A DNA stretch of 32,707 nt from Porticoccaceae bacterium (GTDB taxonomy: Bacteria > Pseudomonadota > Gammaproteobacteria > Pseudomonadales > Porticoccaceae), in contig JAQWGK010000046.1 in assembly GCA_029238255.1 (NCBI GenBank), positions 1-32,707 of the forward strand. The letters run 5' to 3'. Position numbers and translations under genes: made by a program. Within the stretch, counting starts at the first letter, position 1. Each line of letters begins with the position of its first letter. Positions 15,364-22,480 of this stretch are shown here, piece by piece. The notes under the pieces are model-generated. The model searched no databases, was not told the DNA's origin, and saw only the letters and a list, made by a program, of their open reading frames with translations.

Positions 15364-17076
15364 TTGGCTTACAGCAAAGCAAAGATACTGTTACTACTGG
15401 TCTTATCCCTAGCCCTAACCGCCTGTGGCGGCGGTGGTGGAAGTAGCAGCGATAACACTAACACTGGTAACAACAATTCTGGCAGTAACAATTCTGGCAG
15501 TAACAATACTGGTAACAACAATTCTGGCGGTAGCAGCAATAACGGCGGAAATACCAGCACAGACACTGTTAATCCGGTTATTGCCCTTACCGGCGAAGCC
15601 ACAGTTATTCTTGAAACGGGACAATCCTTCTTCGATCAGGGTGCAACTGCAAACGATAATGTTGATGGGTTTCTTACACAAAGCATAACCACAACAGGTT
15701 CAGTTGGCAGCGCAGCCGGTACCTATACCCTGATTTATAGCGTTCAGGACAGTGCTGGTAACAGTGCCAGTGTTACCCGAACAGTTATCATTCAGGCGCC
15801 TGACAACAGCTCTGGCAATGGATCAAATACTGGCGGCAGTAGCGAACCCAGTCAGATCAATATGATCGAAGGGTTTGGCGGTGCAGTGTATGAGGAAAAC
15901 ACCTCGACTTACACTTTCCCATCGGGTACAGAAAATTGGGCCGGTTTTGCCAATATGAACTTTGATGTCTACCCCTTTTCTTTTGCTGATGGCGGCACCA
16001 TCAACTTTACAGCAGCCATCCCGGCTGGCAGCAGTGCGACCCGCGTTTACTTTCGCTTTGAGCGCTTACCTTTCCCGGATGTTGATCCTGCATTTAATCT
16101 GGATTCGGTACTGATCAGTGGAGAAGCTGAGCTGGAGTACACAGTAACCATTCCACCCCAGCCTGAGACTAATACCTTTTCATCATTCCTGATGTATGTA
16201 GTCGAGCGCGACTCTCCGGTTATTGTTAAAAACATCACCGTGACCGATGACCCAGGTGACGCTGATACTGGTGGTAATGGCAACACAGGTGGCGATAACA
16301 CCACTGGTGGCGGCAGCGCTACAGTTAAAGCGATCAACTCCAACAACTGGTTCCATCAGACTATCCTACCCAATGGCTGGGGCTGGTTTAATAATGAGCA
16401 ACAGCATTACACCGACCGAATTGAAAACTCCCACGTCAGCAATGGCAGCATGAAAATTGTTGCCATTAAAGAGAGCTTTAGAGATCAGGGACACACCAAA
16501 GATTTCACCTCGGCACGACTCAATTCAAAGTTCGCGTTTAAATATGGCCGTGTAGAGGTTAGAGCAAAGTTGCCTACGGGTGCTGGCACCTGGCCGGCAA
16601 TCTGGACACTGGGTAAAAACATTAGTGAGTACGGTGCGTACTGGCAAACTCAGGGCTTTGGCACTACCGGTTGGCCAGCCTGTGGCGAGATCGACATTAT
16701 GGAGCACTGGGGCAACAACCAGAACTACGTTCAGAGTGCCATGCACACTCCATCTAGCCATGGCGGTACCATTAACCATGGCGGACAATACATTAGCACC
16801 GCCTCCACACAGTTCCATGTTTATGAAATGGATTGGAACAGTGATCGCATCATCTTTAGTGTGAATGGTAATGAGCACTACAGATACGCGCCCACGGTTA
16901 AAAATGCTGACACCTGGCCCTATGATGCAGAGCAGTATCTAATACTAAATGTTGCCATACAGGACAATATTTCAAATAGCTTTAGTCAGAGCGCCATGGA
17001 GATTGATTACATCAGAATCTATTCAGAAAATGCCAGCTCTACAGCTCCACCGATCTGGTCTGATGAATTTGAATAG
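15364..17076 (+). CDS. GH16 laminarinase-type lipoprotein with apparent circular permutation
   Basis: This is a predicted surface lipoprotein that cleaves beta-1,3-glucans. The start is TTG at 15364 with AAGGGG seven bases upstream. The signal ends in the lipobox LTAC, with lipidated Cys21. Next come a Gly/Ser/Asn linker (22-67) and an Ig-like Cry22Aa/DUF5011 domain (about 68-144). A second linker leads to a beta-rich module (about 165-295; WAGFANMNFDVYPFSF, TFSSFLMYVVERD) that resembles accessory sugar-binding domains of marine laminarinases. A third linker precedes the GH16 fold (about 320-570). The catalytic motif is GEIDIME with E442 nucleophile, D444 and E447 acid/base. The strand W-S-D-E-F that normally opens GH16 is missing before residue 320; PPIWSDEFE instead forms the last nine residues. 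A strong terminator follows. Confidence 0.9.
   Translation: MAYSKAKILLLLVLSLALTACGGGGGSSSDNTNTGNNNSGSNNSGSNNTGNNNSGGSSNNGGNTSTDTVNPVIALTGEATVILETGQSFFDQGATANDNVDGFLTQSITTTGSVGSAAGTYTLIYSVQDSAGNSASVTRTVIIQAPDNSSGNGSNTGGSSEPSQINMIEGFGGAVYEENTSTYTFPSGTENWAGFANMNFDVYPFSFADGGTINFTAAIPAGSSATRVYFRFERLPFPDVDPAFNLDSVLISGEAELEYTVTIPPQPETNTFSSFLMYVVERDSPVIVKNITVTDDPGDADTGGNGNTGGDNTTGGGSATVKAINSNNWFHQTILPNGWGWFNNEQQHYTDRIENSHVSNGSMKIVAIKESFRDQGHTKDFTSARLNSKFAFKYGRVEVRAKLPTGAGTWPAIWTLGKNISEYGAYWQTQGFGTTGWPACGEIDIMEHWGNNQNYVQSAMHTPSSHGGTINHGGQYISTASTQFHVYEMDWNSDRIIFSVNGNEHYRYAPTVKNADTWPYDAEQYLILNVAIQDNISNSFSQSAMEIDYIRIYSENASSTAPPIWSDEFE
15472..15531 (+). repeat. Four 15-base tandem repeats in the GH16 linker
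   Basis: Four in-frame copies of a unit like AACAATTCTGGCAGT (15472-15486, 15487-15501, 15502-15516, 15517-15531) encode NNSGS/NNTGN-type pentapeptides. The first two copies are identical. Such a short tandem array can change copy number by slippage and alter linker length without a frameshift. Confidence 0.85.
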
Positions 17077-17102: not shown

Positions 17103-17142
17103 AAGCCCCTTGCAGCCAGCCGGTTATAAGGGGCTTTTTTTT
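17103..17142 (+). terminator. Intrinsic terminator of the GH16 gene
   Basis: A perfect 9-bp stem (AAGCCCCTT at 17103-17111 with AAGGGGCTT at 17128-17136) and a 16-base loop end in eight T (17135-17142) on the plus strand. It starts 26 bases after the GH16 stop. Its U-tract overlaps the stop codon of the convergent speB gene by two bases. The minus-strand direction lacks a U-run. Confidence 0.93.
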
Positions 17143-18034
17143 ATCTCAGGGTTTCTCGCTCAACTATACCCATCATCTTATAAGCCAACAGTGCCGCGGA
17201 AAATTGGTAGCCATGGAAGCCTGCAATAGGCGCAAACTCGGTGATATCCATACCAATAATATTGCGCTGCTTAACCACAGACTCAAACAGTCCAAGGGTT
17301 TGATACCAGCCCAAGCCACCGGGTACAGGGGTGCCGGTTGAGGGAAAGATAGTTGGATCCATGCCGTCAATATCCAGAGTAAAAAACACATTGTCGGGAA
17401 AATCATCCGGCAGATCGAATGACTGAATATTCTTGGGTACCAGAATATCCGCATCCAGATGCCCTACCCCATAGACCTTTCGAGTGTCCCTCTCCTCCTG
17501 ACAGAACGCCCGAACACCCAGCTGAAACAGCGGGATATCCAGATCGACAATACGCTTCATCACCGAGGCATGACTGTAGGGATTGCCCTCATAGGCATCA
17601 CGCAAATCTGCATGGGCATCAATTTGCACCACACCAAAATCTTCAATACCCGCGTCTATAAGCCCTTTGATAATACCGTAAGTCACCGTGTGCTCACCGC
17701 CCAGCCCCACCGGAAAACCACCGGCTTTAATGAGCGCTGTCGTCGCCGCAGCAATCCGATCAATCGCCTGCTCTGGCGTGCCGCTAACATCCACAGGGGG
17801 ATGGGTGTAAATGCCTTTTTCACTGGGATTACTTTTGCCGTCCCAGGTCTCCAACTGCCAGGAGGCCTCAAGGATAGAGGCCGGGCCATCGGCCGTCCCT
17901 CCACCGTAGGAAACCGACTCTTCGAGAGGCATAGGCAGGATATGGAAAAAAGCCTGTTCAGGTTTGGGATGCTTAAATTCCGAACCCAAAAATATCGGAT
18001 AACCGGGGGCTGCTAGTTGATCAAACTCTGACAT
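17141..18034 (-). CDS. speB: Agmatinase
   Basis: This Mn-dependent ureohydrolase turns agmatine into putrescine and urea. From the chosen ATG, the metal ligands are H115 in GGEHTVTYG, D139/H141/D143 in DAHADLRD, and D221/D223 in DIDGMDP; SHASVMKRI is the usual substrate-side block. The 297 residues are close to the family norm (about 305). The ATG at 18034 is preferred over an upstream in-frame TTG at 18070, because a GAGAGAGA ribosome site lies just before it and the family N-terminus fits. It is the last gene of the polyamine operon, 42 bases after nspC, and completes the arginine-agmatine-putrescine route started by speA. Confidence 0.94.
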   Translation of the reverse strand: MSEFDQLAAPGYPIFLGSEFKHPKPEQAFFHILPMPLEESVSYGGGTADGPASILEASWQLETWDGKSNPSEKGIYTHPPVDVSGTPEQAIDRIAAATTALIKAGGFPVGLGGEHTVTYGIIKGLIDAGIEDFGVVQIDAHADLRDAYEGNPYSHASVMKRIVDLDIPLFQLGVRAFCQEERDTRKVYGVGHLDADILVPKNIQSFDLPDDFPDNVFFTLDIDGMDPTIFPSTGTPVPGGLGWYQTLGLFESVVKQRNIIGMDITEFAPIAGFHGYQFSAALLAYKMMGIVERETLR

Positions 18035-18076
18035 TTTTAAATCTCTCTCAGGTGATTTTTTTCGGTGCAAACCGGC

Positions 18077-19246
18077 TTAGGATAAACGCTGTTTAAAATC
18101 ATTGTAGCCAAATTCCCTGACCAGTCTCAGCTCGTCAGTCCGGGAATTCCAACTGGCGATAGCGGGCAGACCAACACCGTTAAAGGTCATGGTTTTAACC
18201 ATGGTGTAATGGGCCATATCGTCAAACATCAGACGCTGACCTATCTCTAGTGGCGCATCAAAGCTGTAGTCACCCATCACATCACCGGCCAGACAGGTTT
18301 GGCCGCCAAGGCGATAATTAAAGGCTTTGTGATCCTTTTCCCCAGCATTAAAAATATCGGCACGGTAAGGCATTTCCAGAGTATCCGGCATATGGCAGGT
18401 GGCCGAGCTATCCAAAATTGCCAGCGCCATTTCATTGAAAGTGGTATCCAAAACCTCAGTGACCAAAACCCCACTATGTAAAACAGCGGCTTCGCCCGGT
18501 TCCAGATAAACCTGTACAGCATACTTTTCCTGAAAATCCACAATCCGTTTAATCAGTGCGTCTACTGGATAGTCGGCGCGAGTAATATGGTGACCACCGC
18601 CAAAATTAACCCATTCCATTTTGTGCAACAGATCGCCGAACTGCTGTTCAACAACCGCCAGCGTGCGATCCAATGGCGCAAAATCCTGCTCGCAGAGGGT
18701 GTGAAAATGGAGCCCGCTAATACCGGTCAAATCCTGATCGGCGAACTCACTTTTAGGGATACCCAGACGGGAACCCGGGGCACAGGGATCATAGATCGGT
18801 GTGGTTCCCTCGGAGTGCATAGGGTTAATGCGCAGACCAAATTTCAATTCCGGACGCTCTGCTCTGGCCTGCTCAATCAACGGCTGAAACCGCTGCCACT
18901 GCCCCAGAGAATTAAACACCACATGATCGGAAATCTGCATTATCTCCGCCAGCTCATCCTCTTTATAAGCTGCACAGAAGGTATGCACCTCCCCGCTAAA
19001 TTCACCACGACCCAAGCGCGCTTCGTAGAGGCCGCTCGTACAGGTGCCACTCAGATAGCGATCAAACAGCGGCGCCAGACTAAACATTGAGAAGGCTTTT
19101 AAGGCCAACAGTACCTTGGCACCAGACGCCTGCTGCACGCGCTGCAAAATACGCAGATTGTTTTCAACCGCTACTTCGTCGACCACAAAGCAGGGCGATG
19201 GCACTCGTTTGGGGTCAAAGGTTTCAAAGGTTTTACACTTGATCAT
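18077..19246 (-). CDS. nspC: Carboxynorspermidine/carboxyspermidine decarboxylase
   Basis: This PLP enzyme of the alanine-racemase-fold decarboxylases removes CO2 from carboxyspermidine or carboxynorspermidine to give spermidine or norspermidine. The N-terminus VPSPCFVVDEVAVENNL, the PLP lysine K50 in LLALKAFSM, HFHTLCEQ, the phosphate-binding WVNFGGGHHIT, YLEPGEA and GDVMGDYSF are NspC landmarks. The 389 residues are a usual length. The ATG at 19246 has only a distant GGAAG. It follows the dehydrogenase gene by 17 bases, and that enzyme makes its substrate. Because speA and speB supply putrescine, spermidine is the likely main product; norspermidine would need 1,3-diaminopropane, whose genes are not seen here. 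Confidence 0.95.
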   Translation of the reverse strand: MIKCKTFETFDPKRVPSPCFVVDEVAVENNLRILQRVQQASGAKVLLALKAFSMFSLAPLFDRYLSGTCTSGLYEARLGRGEFSGEVHTFCAAYKEDELAEIMQISDHVVFNSLGQWQRFQPLIEQARAERPELKFGLRINPMHSEGTTPIYDPCAPGSRLGIPKSEFADQDLTGISGLHFHTLCEQDFAPLDRTLAVVEQQFGDLLHKMEWVNFGGGHHITRADYPVDALIKRIVDFQEKYAVQVYLEPGEAAVLHSGVLVTEVLDTTFNEMALAILDSSATCHMPDTLEMPYRADIFNAGEKDHKAFNYRLGGQTCLAGDVMGDYSFDAPLEIGQRLMFDDMAHYTMVKTMTFNGVGLPAIASWNSRTDELRLVREFGYNDFKQRLS

Positions 19247-19263
19247 CGGCGTTTGGCTTCCCG

Positions 19264-20472
19264 TTAGAGCAAATCAAAATCAGGGTCTTCAATCACCTTC
19301 CATGAAAGCCCGTGCTGATTCATATCATCCATAAAGGCATCGGGATCCATCTGCTCAATATTCCACACCCCGGGTTTCATCCACAGACCCTGAACCATTA
19401 ACTTGGCACTGATCATGGCCGGTACACCGGTCGTATAGGAGATCGCCTGAGACTGCACTTCGCGATAGCAGTCCTGATGATCCTTAATATTGTACAGATA
19501 GACGGTTTTTTCGCGGCCATCAGAAATGCCCGTTACCACACAGCCAATACAGGTTTTGCCGGTGGTTCTCGGCCCCAGAGTCGAGGGGTCTGGCAGCAGC
19601 GCCTTGAGAAACTGAATAGGGACAATCTTCTGACCCTGAAACTCCATCGGCTCAATGCCGGTCATACCCACATTGCCCAACACCTCAAGATGCTTTAAAT
19701 AGCTTTCGCCAAAGCTCATCCAGAACTGCGCCTTTTTAATCGTTGGGAAATTAAGCGTCAGGGATTCCAACTCTTCGTGATACATACGGTAGATATCATA
19801 ACTACCAACCCCTTCAGGGCAGGTAAAAGGCTGACTGGTGGACATCGCCGGCGTGGAAACAAATTCGCCGTTCTCCCAGTGCCGACACTCGGCCGTCACT
19901 TCACGGATATTGATCTCCGGATTAAAGTTGGTGGCAAAGGGGTAACCATGATCGCCGCCGTTAACATCAATAATATCCAGCGTATGAATTTCATCGAAAT
20001 AATGCTTTGCGATATAGGCGGTAAAGACATTGGTCGCACCGGGATCAAAGCCACAGCCCAGTAGCGCCATAAGACCGGCATCGGCAAAGCGCTGCTGGTA
20101 GGCCCACTGCCAACTGTACTCAAACTTTGCAGTGTCCAGCGGCTCGTAATTGGCGGTATCCATATAGTGTACGCCCGCTCCGAGACAGGCATCCATAATG
20201 GTCAGATCCTGATAGGGCAAGGCGACATTGATCACCATAAAAGGCTTTACCCGCTCAAATAGGGCTACCAGTTCAGGCACCTTATCGGCATCCACAGCGG
20301 CAGTTTCAATACTGCGGCCATAGCTCTGATGAATCTGCTCGGCAATTTTTTTACACTTGCTCTCGGTGCGACTGGCGAGCACTATTTGGTCGAATACATC
20401 GCCCATCTGCGCGCATTTATGGGCCACAACCTGACCCACACCACCGGCACCAATAATGATAATTTTAGCCAT
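19264..20472 (-). CDS. Carboxynorspermidine/carboxyspermidine dehydrogenase
   Basis: This NADPH-dependent enzyme of the saccharopine-dehydrogenase (LYS1-like) family reductively couples aspartate beta-semialdehyde to putrescine or 1,3-diaminopropane. The Rossmann motif is IIGAGGVGQVVAHK (6-19). Other blocks typical of the polyamine branch, as opposed to lysine enzymes, are YMDTANYEPLD, LLGCGFDPGATNVF, DVNGGDHGYPFATNF and TTGVPAMISAKLM. The length of 402 residues is normal. The ATG at 20472 follows speA by 11 bases and nspC follows after 17, a tight operon. Saccharopine dehydrogenase is the main alternative, but the nspC neighbour argues strongly against it. Confidence 0.94.
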   Translation of the reverse strand: MAKIIIIGAGGVGQVVAHKCAQMGDVFDQIVLASRTESKCKKIAEQIHQSYGRSIETAAVDADKVPELVALFERVKPFMVINVALPYQDLTIMDACLGAGVHYMDTANYEPLDTAKFEYSWQWAYQQRFADAGLMALLGCGFDPGATNVFTAYIAKHYFDEIHTLDIIDVNGGDHGYPFATNFNPEINIREVTAECRHWENGEFVSTPAMSTSQPFTCPEGVGSYDIYRMYHEELESLTLNFPTIKKAQFWMSFGESYLKHLEVLGNVGMTGIEPMEFQGQKIVPIQFLKALLPDPSTLGPRTTGKTCIGCVVTGISDGREKTVYLYNIKDHQDCYREVQSQAISYTTGVPAMISAKLMVQGLWMKPGVWNIEQMDPDAFMDDMNQHGLSWKVIEDPDFDLL

Positions 20473-20483
20473 AATTTTCTCTT

Positions 20484-22388
20484 CTAATTCTCTCGCTCGT
20501 AGTAGGTATAACCCTGCATACTGGCTCTAAAAGCCTTGATCATCTGCTGGCGCTCGGCCACCGAAATTCGTCCCTGCTGCACCGCCCGCTCTGCGGTATT
20601 GCGGTAACTCAGCTCCAGCTGCTTCGGCTCATACTCCACATAGCTCAATACATCCGCGATGGTGTCACCGATCATCTCTTTAACAAAATCAAAACTGCCA
20701 TCGCGGTTTAAACGCACACTGACAACATTGGTATCGCCAAATAAATTATGCAGATCACCCAGTGTCTCCTGATAGGCGCCGACCAAAAAGACTCCTAAAT
20801 AGTATTCCTCACCAACTTTTAACGGATGCAGAGGCAGGGTTTTTTCCGGCTCGGTAAGACCGATAAAATTATCGATCTTGCCATCGCAATCGCAGGTAAT
20901 ATCCGCCAGTACCGCCTGTCGAGTCGGCTCTTCGTCGAGGCGATGAATGGGCATAATCGGGAACAGCTGATCGATGGCCCAGATATCCGGCAGTGACTGA
21001 AAGAGACTGAAATTGCCGTAGTAAATATCCGCCAGTGACAGTTTTAACCCGGCCATACTCTCCGGAACCTGTTCCATAGTATCCAGGGCATCGGCAATAT
21101 TGTGCAGCACATCGAGAAAGATATTCTCGGCGCTGGCGCGACAGCGCAGATCAATCTGTCCGGCCTTAAATCCATCGCGAATCTGATTGCGGTACAGATG
21201 AACCTGTTCATAGCTCTGCTCAATATTATCCGTTGTCAGATAAGTGGAGACATTGCGCAGCTTTGCCAGCAGCGGATGCTCATCCGCCTGAGCTAAACTT
21301 TTACTACTCGATTCAAAAGTCGTCGTGTCGAGAATATTGAACAGCAACACCGAGGCGTAAGCCACCACCGCCCGACCTGACTCGGTGACAATCACCGGAT
21401 GGGCAACAGACTCATTGTCGAGGGTCTGCTTAAGCGTTTCGACAAGGGTTTCGCAGTACTCTTCAAGGCTGTAGTTGCGACTGTGGTTATCCTCACTCTG
21501 AATACCCGAGTAATCCACCGCCAGCCCACCGCCAAAATCTATATGGGTCAGCGCGGCACCCTCGCGCACCAGATCCACATAGTAGCGACTGGCTTCAATC
21601 ACACCGTTGCGAATATCCCCGAGACTGGGAATCTGTGATCCCAGATGGCAGTGCATCAGTTTTAGACAGTCGAGCATCTGCTCCTGTCTTAGGCTATCCA
21701 CCACATCAATCAACTGAGTAGCAGTGAGACCAAAAATACTTCTATCACCACTGGTCGAATTCCAGTGGCCGCTGACCTGAGAGATCATCTTGATACGAAT
21801 ACCAATCATTGGACGAATATTCATCGCCCGACTGCGCTCAATAATAATCGGCAGTTCAGAGGGTGTTTCAATGACAAAGAAACATTCAAAGCCGAGCTTA
21901 GTGGCCTGCAAACCGAGGTCGATAAATTCCTCATCTTTATAGCCATTACAGATAATCAAGCGACCGGGCTCCAGAGAAGAGAGCGCAATAATCATCTCCG
22001 GCTTACTGCCCACCTCAAGCCCGTGGTGATAGCGTTCACCAAAGTCGGCGATCTCTTCAACCACCTGCGCCTGCTGATTGACCTTGATTGGGTAAACGCC
22101 ACGGTAGGGCTGGGTATAAGAGGCATTGGCTATAGCGCTAGAAAAAGCTTCGCTAAGGCGTTGAATCTGTGCATCGAGAATATTTTCGACCCGCAGCAAC
22201 ACTGGCATCTGTAAATCCCGATCGACCATACCCTTCACTATATCCACCAGTGCAACTTCGGTGTTGAGGGTTTTTGCGGTTACATGACCGGCATCGGAAA
22301 GACCAAAATAGTCATTTCCCCAGCGCTCAATTCCGTAAAGATCAGCAGACTGTTTCGCCTGCCAGGGTTGTTTTGTTTTCTGATCCAT
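20484..22388 (-). CDS. speA: Biosynthetic arginine decarboxylase
   Basis: This PLP-dependent enzyme converts arginine to agmatine, the first step of the cluster's polyamine route. The 634 residues have the alanine-racemase-like PLP barrel with K102 in VYPIKVNQQAQVVEE, HCHLGSQIP and THIDFGGGLAVDYSG, the long insertion typical of bacterial SpeA, and DITCDCDGKID with the conserved Cys near the C-terminus. The start is taken as ATG 22388 with GGG seven bases upstream; an in-frame TTG four codons earlier is possible but weaker. It is the first gene of the operon. A hairpin in the upstream region (22481-22502) may be regulatory. Confidence 0.95.
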   Translation of the reverse strand: MDQKTKQPWQAKQSADLYGIERWGNDYFGLSDAGHVTAKTLNTEVALVDIVKGMVDRDLQMPVLLRVENILDAQIQRLSEAFSSAIANASYTQPYRGVYPIKVNQQAQVVEEIADFGERYHHGLEVGSKPEMIIALSSLEPGRLIICNGYKDEEFIDLGLQATKLGFECFFVIETPSELPIIIERSRAMNIRPMIGIRIKMISQVSGHWNSTSGDRSIFGLTATQLIDVVDSLRQEQMLDCLKLMHCHLGSQIPSLGDIRNGVIEASRYYVDLVREGAALTHIDFGGGLAVDYSGIQSEDNHSRNYSLEEYCETLVETLKQTLDNESVAHPVIVTESGRAVVAYASVLLFNILDTTTFESSSKSLAQADEHPLLAKLRNVSTYLTTDNIEQSYEQVHLYRNQIRDGFKAGQIDLRCRASAENIFLDVLHNIADALDTMEQVPESMAGLKLSLADIYYGNFSLFQSLPDIWAIDQLFPIMPIHRLDEEPTRQAVLADITCDCDGKIDNFIGLTEPEKTLPLHPLKVGEEYYLGVFLVGAYQETLGDLHNLFGDTNVVSVRLNRDGSFDFVKEMIGDTIADVLSYVEYEPKQLELSYRNTAERAVQQGRISVAERQQMIKAFRASMQGYTYYEREN

Positions 22389-22480
22389 AATCTGACCCAA
22401 AATCTAATCTAAAACCCAAATTAACTGCTTTGATCGTTTAAAACAGCGCAGCGGTTAATCGAAAAATAAGCCTGTTTCAA

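What the first reader, a model, noticed from the sequence alone, without database searches (positions are those of the whole stretch)
16318..17076. GH16 laminarinase domain appears naturally circularly permuted
Seen directly: the catalytic motif GEIDIME is present, but the opening GH16 strand (W-S-D-E-F, normally about 10-25 residues before the INxxNWxHQT block) is absent upstream. The domain starts abruptly with AINSNNWFHQT after a Gly/Asn linker. The protein then ends with APPIWSDEFE and a stop. The last residues therefore are the missing first strand. In GH16 jelly-rolls the two chain ends lie close together, so moving this strand is structurally feasible. Natural permutation is known for the Fibrobacter succinogenes GH16 lichenase, and permutation by duplication with loss of both ends would leave exactly this arrangement. 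A truncated second GH16 module is the other reading.
Basis: partly seen in the sequence, partly recalled or inferred. Interest (0 to 1): 0.72.

Follow-up and report, generated by a model that had tools for sequence, protein, structure and literature searches.

The report
Circularly permuted marine laminarin-degrading enzyme
In a group of ocean bacteria, an enzyme that probably digests the algal sugar laminarin carries the first strand of its fold at the end of the chain, and the close relatives found in that group share this swapped order, so it looks like an inherited natural rearrangement rather than a broken gene.

Summary
The GH16 domain of the 570-aa ORF at 15364-17076 lacks the opening LVWSDEF strand in front and carries PIWSDEF at its C-terminus.

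It is not a one-off. Of 109 unique near-complete GH16 domains, 44 have the motif only at the C-terminus, 64 only in front, one has a variant in front, none has both. The 44 come from SAR92/Porticoccaceae or Pseudomonadales/Proteobacteria MAGs; the 46 close canonical ones are Bacteroidota. Of 69 domains from Bacteroidota genomes, partly the same ones, none has it C-terminally. Eleven permuted frames are little more than a leader plus the domain, so a truncated second module does not explain them.

D-E-F of the moved strand is invariant in 44 of 44 with synonymous codon changes. AlphaFold2 makes the tail an ordered strand; its exact slot was not measured. Catalytic residues are intact.

Best reading: a GH16 laminarinase with a natural one-strand circular permutation. 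One origin is possible but unproven. Natural permutation in GH16 is known (Fibrobacter lichenase), so this is a new variant of a known kind.

The parts
15364..17076 (+). CDS, 570 aa, modular probable lipoprotein with a circularly permuted GH16 domain (TTG start)
15364..15423 (+). probable lipoprotein signal peptide ending in LTAC (residues 1-20)
   Evidence: read from the sequence; lipobox rule recalled, no predictor run
15580..15792 (+). Ig-like domain PF16403 (residues 73-143)
   Evidence: E 9.3e-20
15799..16317 (+). unnamed module (residues 146-318) that recurs many times in the same genome; perhaps carbohydrate-binding (inference)
   Evidence: no family; no PDB relative
16330..17022 (+). 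GH16 core without its first strand (residues 323-553)
16687..16704 (+). EIDIME catalytic motif; E442, D444 and E447 invariant in the 44 aligned permuted sequences; E442 aligns with the position mutated in ZgLamA E269S
   Evidence: title of 4bow
17023..17055 (+). 11-residue connector SENASSTAPPI (residues 554-564) from the old C-terminus to the moved strand
17056..17073 (+). moved first strand, W565-S-D-E-F-E570
17074..17076 (+). stop codon; an inverted repeat followed by T's lies downstream at about 17103-17142
   Evidence: by eye; the consensus scan does not list it

Best explanation
The domain is a natural circular permutation of a GH16 laminarinase. The first strand of the jelly roll (LVWSDEF in ordinary relatives) is encoded after the last one and joined to it by a connector of 6-11 residues; the new N-terminus lies in the former loop between strand 1 and the AINxxxW segment. 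The chain folds to the usual jelly roll, with the C-terminal strand filling the slot of the ordinary N-terminal strand, and the intact EIDIME site cleaves beta-1,3-glucan by the retaining mechanism of the family. Shown: the strand order, its conservation, its restriction to one bacterial family in the samples searched, intact catalytic residues, a confident model with an ordered tail. Inferred: the exact slot of the strand, activity on laminarin, and a one-time origin (perhaps tandem duplication and loss of both ends) in the SAR92/Porticoccaceae line, in a gene shared by transfer with Bacteroidota.
For: 44 of 109 unique domains have the motif at the C-terminus only, none has both. 39 of 112 genomes of the window's family have a match at E <= 1e-40, and each of the 39 shows at least one C-terminal motif in the flanks read. 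Canonical controls in the same genome: L009 and L012. Doubling test with canonical and shuffled controls. Profile against profile: permuted columns 3-234 match canonical columns 13-244, leaving the two ends over. D-E-F invariant in 44 of 44 with codons GAT 26/GAC 18, GAA 22/GAG 22, TTT 35/TTC 9. Eleven compact frames of 277-293 aa hold a leader-like start and the permuted domain. AlphaFold2: mean pLDDT 93.1, pTM 0.90, last block 94, strand 245-247. Nearest solved structures are ZgLamA, TM 0.81-0.82.
Against: No coordinates, so contact of the tail with the slot was not measured. The moved strand is 3 residues long in the model against 6 (2-7) in the canonical model, and the canonical model has one further short strand (37-39) that the permuted one lacks. 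Foldseek in sequence order gives TM 0.82 for the permuted and 0.90 for the canonical model against ZgLamA; some loss is expected because the moved strand cannot align in order, but I could not separate this from other differences. The moved piece is short, so single score gains are small and the best shuffled tail reached 10.0 bits. Free trees need 3 or 4 changes, and 0% of 200 bootstrap trees put the permuted rows on one side of a branch. No biochemical data.
Confidence: 0.91

Rival explanations
1. Truncated second GH16 module: the C-terminal WSDEF is the remnant start of a tandem GH16 domain cut off by a stop, and the first module has simply lost its strand.
For: Neighbouring GH16 genes and fusions occur here, and such a cut would leave this arrangement at the moment of origin.
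Against: The arrangement is kept in 44 sequences, with connectors of 6-11 residues and D-E-F invariant despite codon changes; 11 frames are compact; in several proteins Asp-rich repeats of TSP3 type (label recalled) follow the motif. A relic would decay.
Confidence: 0.04
2. A conserved C-terminal tail with another role (for example sorting or docking) that merely resembles the first strand, the jelly roll lacking that strand.
For: 32 of 44 frames end within 3 residues of the motif, as a terminal signal would.
Against: In 12 of 44 the chain goes on beyond the motif; the tail matches the profile positions that are missing in front; the model makes it an ordered strand.
Confidence: 0.04
3. Permutation is real, but arose several times or was reversed, instead of having one origin.
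For: Free trees need 3 or 4 changes; 0% of 200 bootstrap trees show one; two main connector lengths exist, 11 (23 of 44) and 7 (18 of 44).
Against: One clade is not rejected, p-AU 0.368; in the larger set the tree holding them together has the higher log-likelihood, by 11.46 (p-AU 0.631). The permuted domains share one cut region and one bacterial family. The backbone is poorly resolved.
Confidence: 0.2

Closest known systems
Zobellia galactanivorans LamA (GH16; PDB 4bq1, 4bow, 4bpz)
   Same: Best sequence match (E 2.2e-60) and best fold match (TM 0.81-0.82, 45-46% identity) among solved structures; nucleophile position aligned.
   Different: The match begins at chain residue 28, leaving an N-terminal part in front; the window domain has no such part and carries the strand at its end. 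The ZgLamA N-terminal letters themselves were not shown by the calls.
Bacteroidota GH16 laminarinase-like proteins (for example L017, L023, L026)
   Same: Nearest canonical relatives, up to 73% identity in the best segment; same core and catalytic motif.
   Different: WSDEF-type motif at the N-terminus.
Fibrobacter succinogenes 1,3-1,4-beta-glucanase, the known natural circular permutation in GH16 (Tsai et al. 2003; only its title seen, in reference lists)
   Same: Naturally permuted GH16 jelly roll.
   Different: A lichenase; from memory its cut lies deeper in the chain and moves a larger segment, whereas here one strand of about 10 residues moves.
Engineered permuted Bacillus glucanases (1cpm, 1ajk, 1ajo; passage of PMC2395249)
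   Same: Show that the fold can be made with new ends at positions 59, 84 and 127.
   Different: Man-made; other cut sites.

Membership tests
GH16 (Pfam PF00722) | Profile match above the curated cut-off | tested here: met
   75.3 bits against a cut-off of 22
GH16 (Pfam PF00722) | E-x-D-x-x-E catalytic motif | tested here: met
   GEIDIME; E442, D444, E447 invariant in 44 sequences; motif definition recalled
GH16 (Pfam PF00722) | Jelly-roll fold | tested here: met
   Model pLDDT 93.1; the 50 PDB hits listed are by title laminarinases, glucanases, carrageenases, a porphyranase and O-glycanases
GH16 laminarinase | Hydrolysis of laminarin | not testable with these tools
   No assay; inferred from ZgLamA-like relatives
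Natural circular permutation | Same elements in rotated sequence order relative to homologues | tested here: met
   models agree but for one short strand
Natural circular permutation | Better match after self-concatenation | tested here: met
   +2.1 to +10.1 bits in 44 of 44; -3.2 to -3.1 in 46 canonical controls
Natural circular permutation | Moved segment superposes on the original slot | not testable with these tools
   No coordinates given; the second structure aligner was not on the machine
Fibrobacter-type permuted lichenase | Same cut site | not tested
   Difference stated from memory only

The most novel reading that the evidence does not exclude
A whole bacterial family of laminarinases was permuted once and the move is adaptive: the closing strand comes last off the ribosome and through the membrane, so the jelly roll latches only when the chain is complete, and in the fused proteins (L093, L110, L111) the strand can be exchanged between modules. 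That would be a strand-complementing design rather than a neutral accident.
Probability: 0.12. Interest if true: 0.78.

Novelty: new variant of a known kind. Interest (0 to 1): 0.56.

Why it matters
Natural circular permutations of enzymes are mostly known from comparisons of distant proteins. Here a set of 44 permuted domains stands beside close unpermuted relatives (up to 73% identity in the best segment), so the cost or benefit of moving one strand can be measured directly. It sits in SAR92-type bacteria: two permuted genes (L013, L070) lie on a contig of a MAG named X_MB111, and a MAG of that name is listed in PMC10108472 among four of six highly expressed SAR92 MAGs with laminarin loci (passages; that they are the same MAG is inferred from the name). 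The moved piece, about 4-6% of the domain, lies below the 20% (or loosened 10%) size limit that one structural survey of permutations set (PMC2395249, passage), so such small permutations may be overlooked. A domain search alone reads these proteins as GH16 with a ragged start.

Tried and rejected
Truncated second module: rejected because of the conserved family, the compact frames and the repeats that follow the motif. Sequencing or frame error: rejected, 43 other unique domains have the same order. N-terminal strand hidden upstream: the motif search in the 45 residues before each permuted core finds nothing, and in compact frames the core follows a leader-like start. Intermediate with both strands: none in 109 or 69 domains. 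One origin: neither shown nor rejected. Literature: searches found no paper; others (5 papers; 5; 1; 1) and the looser (10 of 32 listed) show none that by title and start of abstract describes a permuted laminarinase; the library lacks most subscription journals, so this is no proof that none is in print. Promoter and terminator scan: nothing that bears on the question.

Rows dropped before counts: 13 partial domains, among them pieces from permuted genes (L106, L115, L116, which show the C-terminal motif, and L117, an N-terminal piece) and L062, a canonical one from a MAG labelled Bdellovibrio; 4 partial domains. One row (second domain of L068) has MSDEF in front, missed by the search pattern, and was counted as canonical in the tree. 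Six rows lack the pattern: five show variants in front (YADEF, WEDNF, WEDSF) and one starts at a contig end. The 69 domains overlap the first survey in part.

Full report
What is there. The ORF at 15364-17076 encodes 570 aa: a probable lipoprotein leader, an Ig-like domain (PF16403), a module without a family name, and a GH16 domain (PF00722, E 5.2e-21). The GH16 domain begins at KAINSNNWFHQT and ends ...IDYIRIYSENASSTAPPIWSDEFE-stop. The opening strand of ordinary GH16 proteins, LVWSDEF, is absent in front and present at the very end.

A second copy in the same genome. The genome (2.21 Mb in 79 contigs) holds four GH16 matches. One, L002, is 77% identical over the domain, has the same order, and after WSDEFN runs on into Asp-rich repeats (TSP3 type by recall). 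Two others, L009 and L012, have the canonical order, with LAWSDEF and LVWADDF in front.

Survey. One scan of genome contigs gave 59 loci. Of 112 genomes of the window's family, 39 have a match at E <= 1e-40; in each of the 39 at least one C-terminal motif was read. At E <= 1e-60 the order sample gave 8 of 390, all in the window's genus, and the class sample 1 of 369, the window's own genome. From the loci 109 unique near-complete domains were cut out, 13 partial ones being dropped: 44 have the motif at the C-terminus only, 64 in front only, one has a variant in front, none has both. The named records with the permuted form are SAR92, Porticoccaceae, or Pseudomonadales/Proteobacteria MAGs. The 46 close canonical rows are labelled Bacteroidota, while 11 of the 19 distant canonical rows are from the window's own family. 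In 395 genomes of a Bacteroidota order, 59 matched at E <= 1e-60; with three genomes reached through loci, 69 domains, overlapping the first survey in part, were classified: 63 in front, 0 C-terminal, 0 both, 6 without the pattern (five variants in front, one contig end).

Is the tail the missing strand? Profile against profile, permuted columns 3-234 align with canonical columns 13-244, leaving canonical 1-12 and the permuted tail over. Setting each permuted domain end to end with itself raises its score against the canonical profile in 44 of 44 cases (2.1 to 10.1 bits) and lowers it in 46 canonical controls. Shuffled tails reach the gain of their own sequence in 5 of 2200 trials, the largest shuffled gain being 10.0 bits. 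In the tail D, E and F are invariant in 44 of 44 while their codons vary, and the connector before them varies. This is what selection on a structural strand would give.

Structure. AlphaFold2 on the window domain with 43 permuted relatives gives pLDDT 93.1, pTM 0.90, a last block of 94 and a strand at 245-247, the W-S-D of the motif. A canonical relative (L017) modelled in the same way has a strand at 2-7 (LVWSDE) and then the same list shifted by ten residues, except for one short strand at 37-39 that the permuted model lacks; the moved strand is also shorter, 3 residues against 6. The best PDB hits are ZgLamA for both (TM 0.82 and 0.90).

Function. The GEIDIME motif is intact and its first glutamate aligns with the position mutated in ZgLamA E269S. 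E442, D444 and E447 are invariant in the permuted set. A beta-1,3-glucanase acting on laminarin is the likely role; specificity was not tested. The window neighbours are a 2OG-Fe(II) oxygenase, polyamine genes and housekeeping genes, not a laminarin locus. In 9 of 43 loci that hold a permuted domain a distant canonical GH16 lies on the same strand, in three of them in the same open frame (L093, L110, L111); many of the loci are short, so this is a lower bound.

Origin. On the first tree the permuted rows need three changes of state, of which well supported branches force one; 0% of 200 bootstrap trees show a single change. One clade is not rejected (p-AU 0.368). On a larger set the free quick tree needs four changes, but the tree holding the permuted rows together scores higher (p-AU 0.631). 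A single origin fits but is not shown. Neighbouring close copies exist in both groups (L016 permuted, L017 canonical), so duplication followed by loss of both ends is plausible; no intermediate was seen.

Place among known things. Natural permutation in GH16 is known from the Fibrobacter lichenase (title seen in reference lists), and engineered permuted Bacillus glucanases exist (passage). The present case differs in enzyme type, in the bacteria that carry it and, as I recall the Fibrobacter case, in the cut site and the size of the moved piece. Searches of the open library listed no description of a permuted laminarinase. I rate it a new variant of a known kind.

Noticed in passing
15799-16317: The module before the GH16 domain (residues 146-318) recurs at many other places in the same genome, several times in tandem inside long open frames (C3, C52, C62), yet has no Pfam, NCBIfam or PDB relative at the thresholds used.
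   Followed up: partly
L009:79-3603: A very long canonical GH16 protein of the same genome has a C-terminal region after its GH16 domain that resembles a CotH-type kinase (label recalled, not tested).
   Followed up: no
L118 (G057:C6): Pieces of a decayed permuted GH16 copy with in-frame stops lie just upstream of an intact permuted one.
   Followed up: no
L110, L111: A canonical GH16 is joined through a linker of about six residues to a permuted GH16 in one 996-aa open frame.
   Followed up: partly
L019, L024, L025, L063: In these four Bacteroidota relatives about nine extra residues sit between the WSDEF-type motif and the core, in the loop where the permuted family is cut; this loop seems tolerant of change.
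   Followed up: no
17141-22400: Downstream minus-strand genes look like a polyamine cluster: an arginine decarboxylase (Pfam), and agmatinase-like and carboxynorspermidine-type enzymes (by eye).
   Followed up: partly
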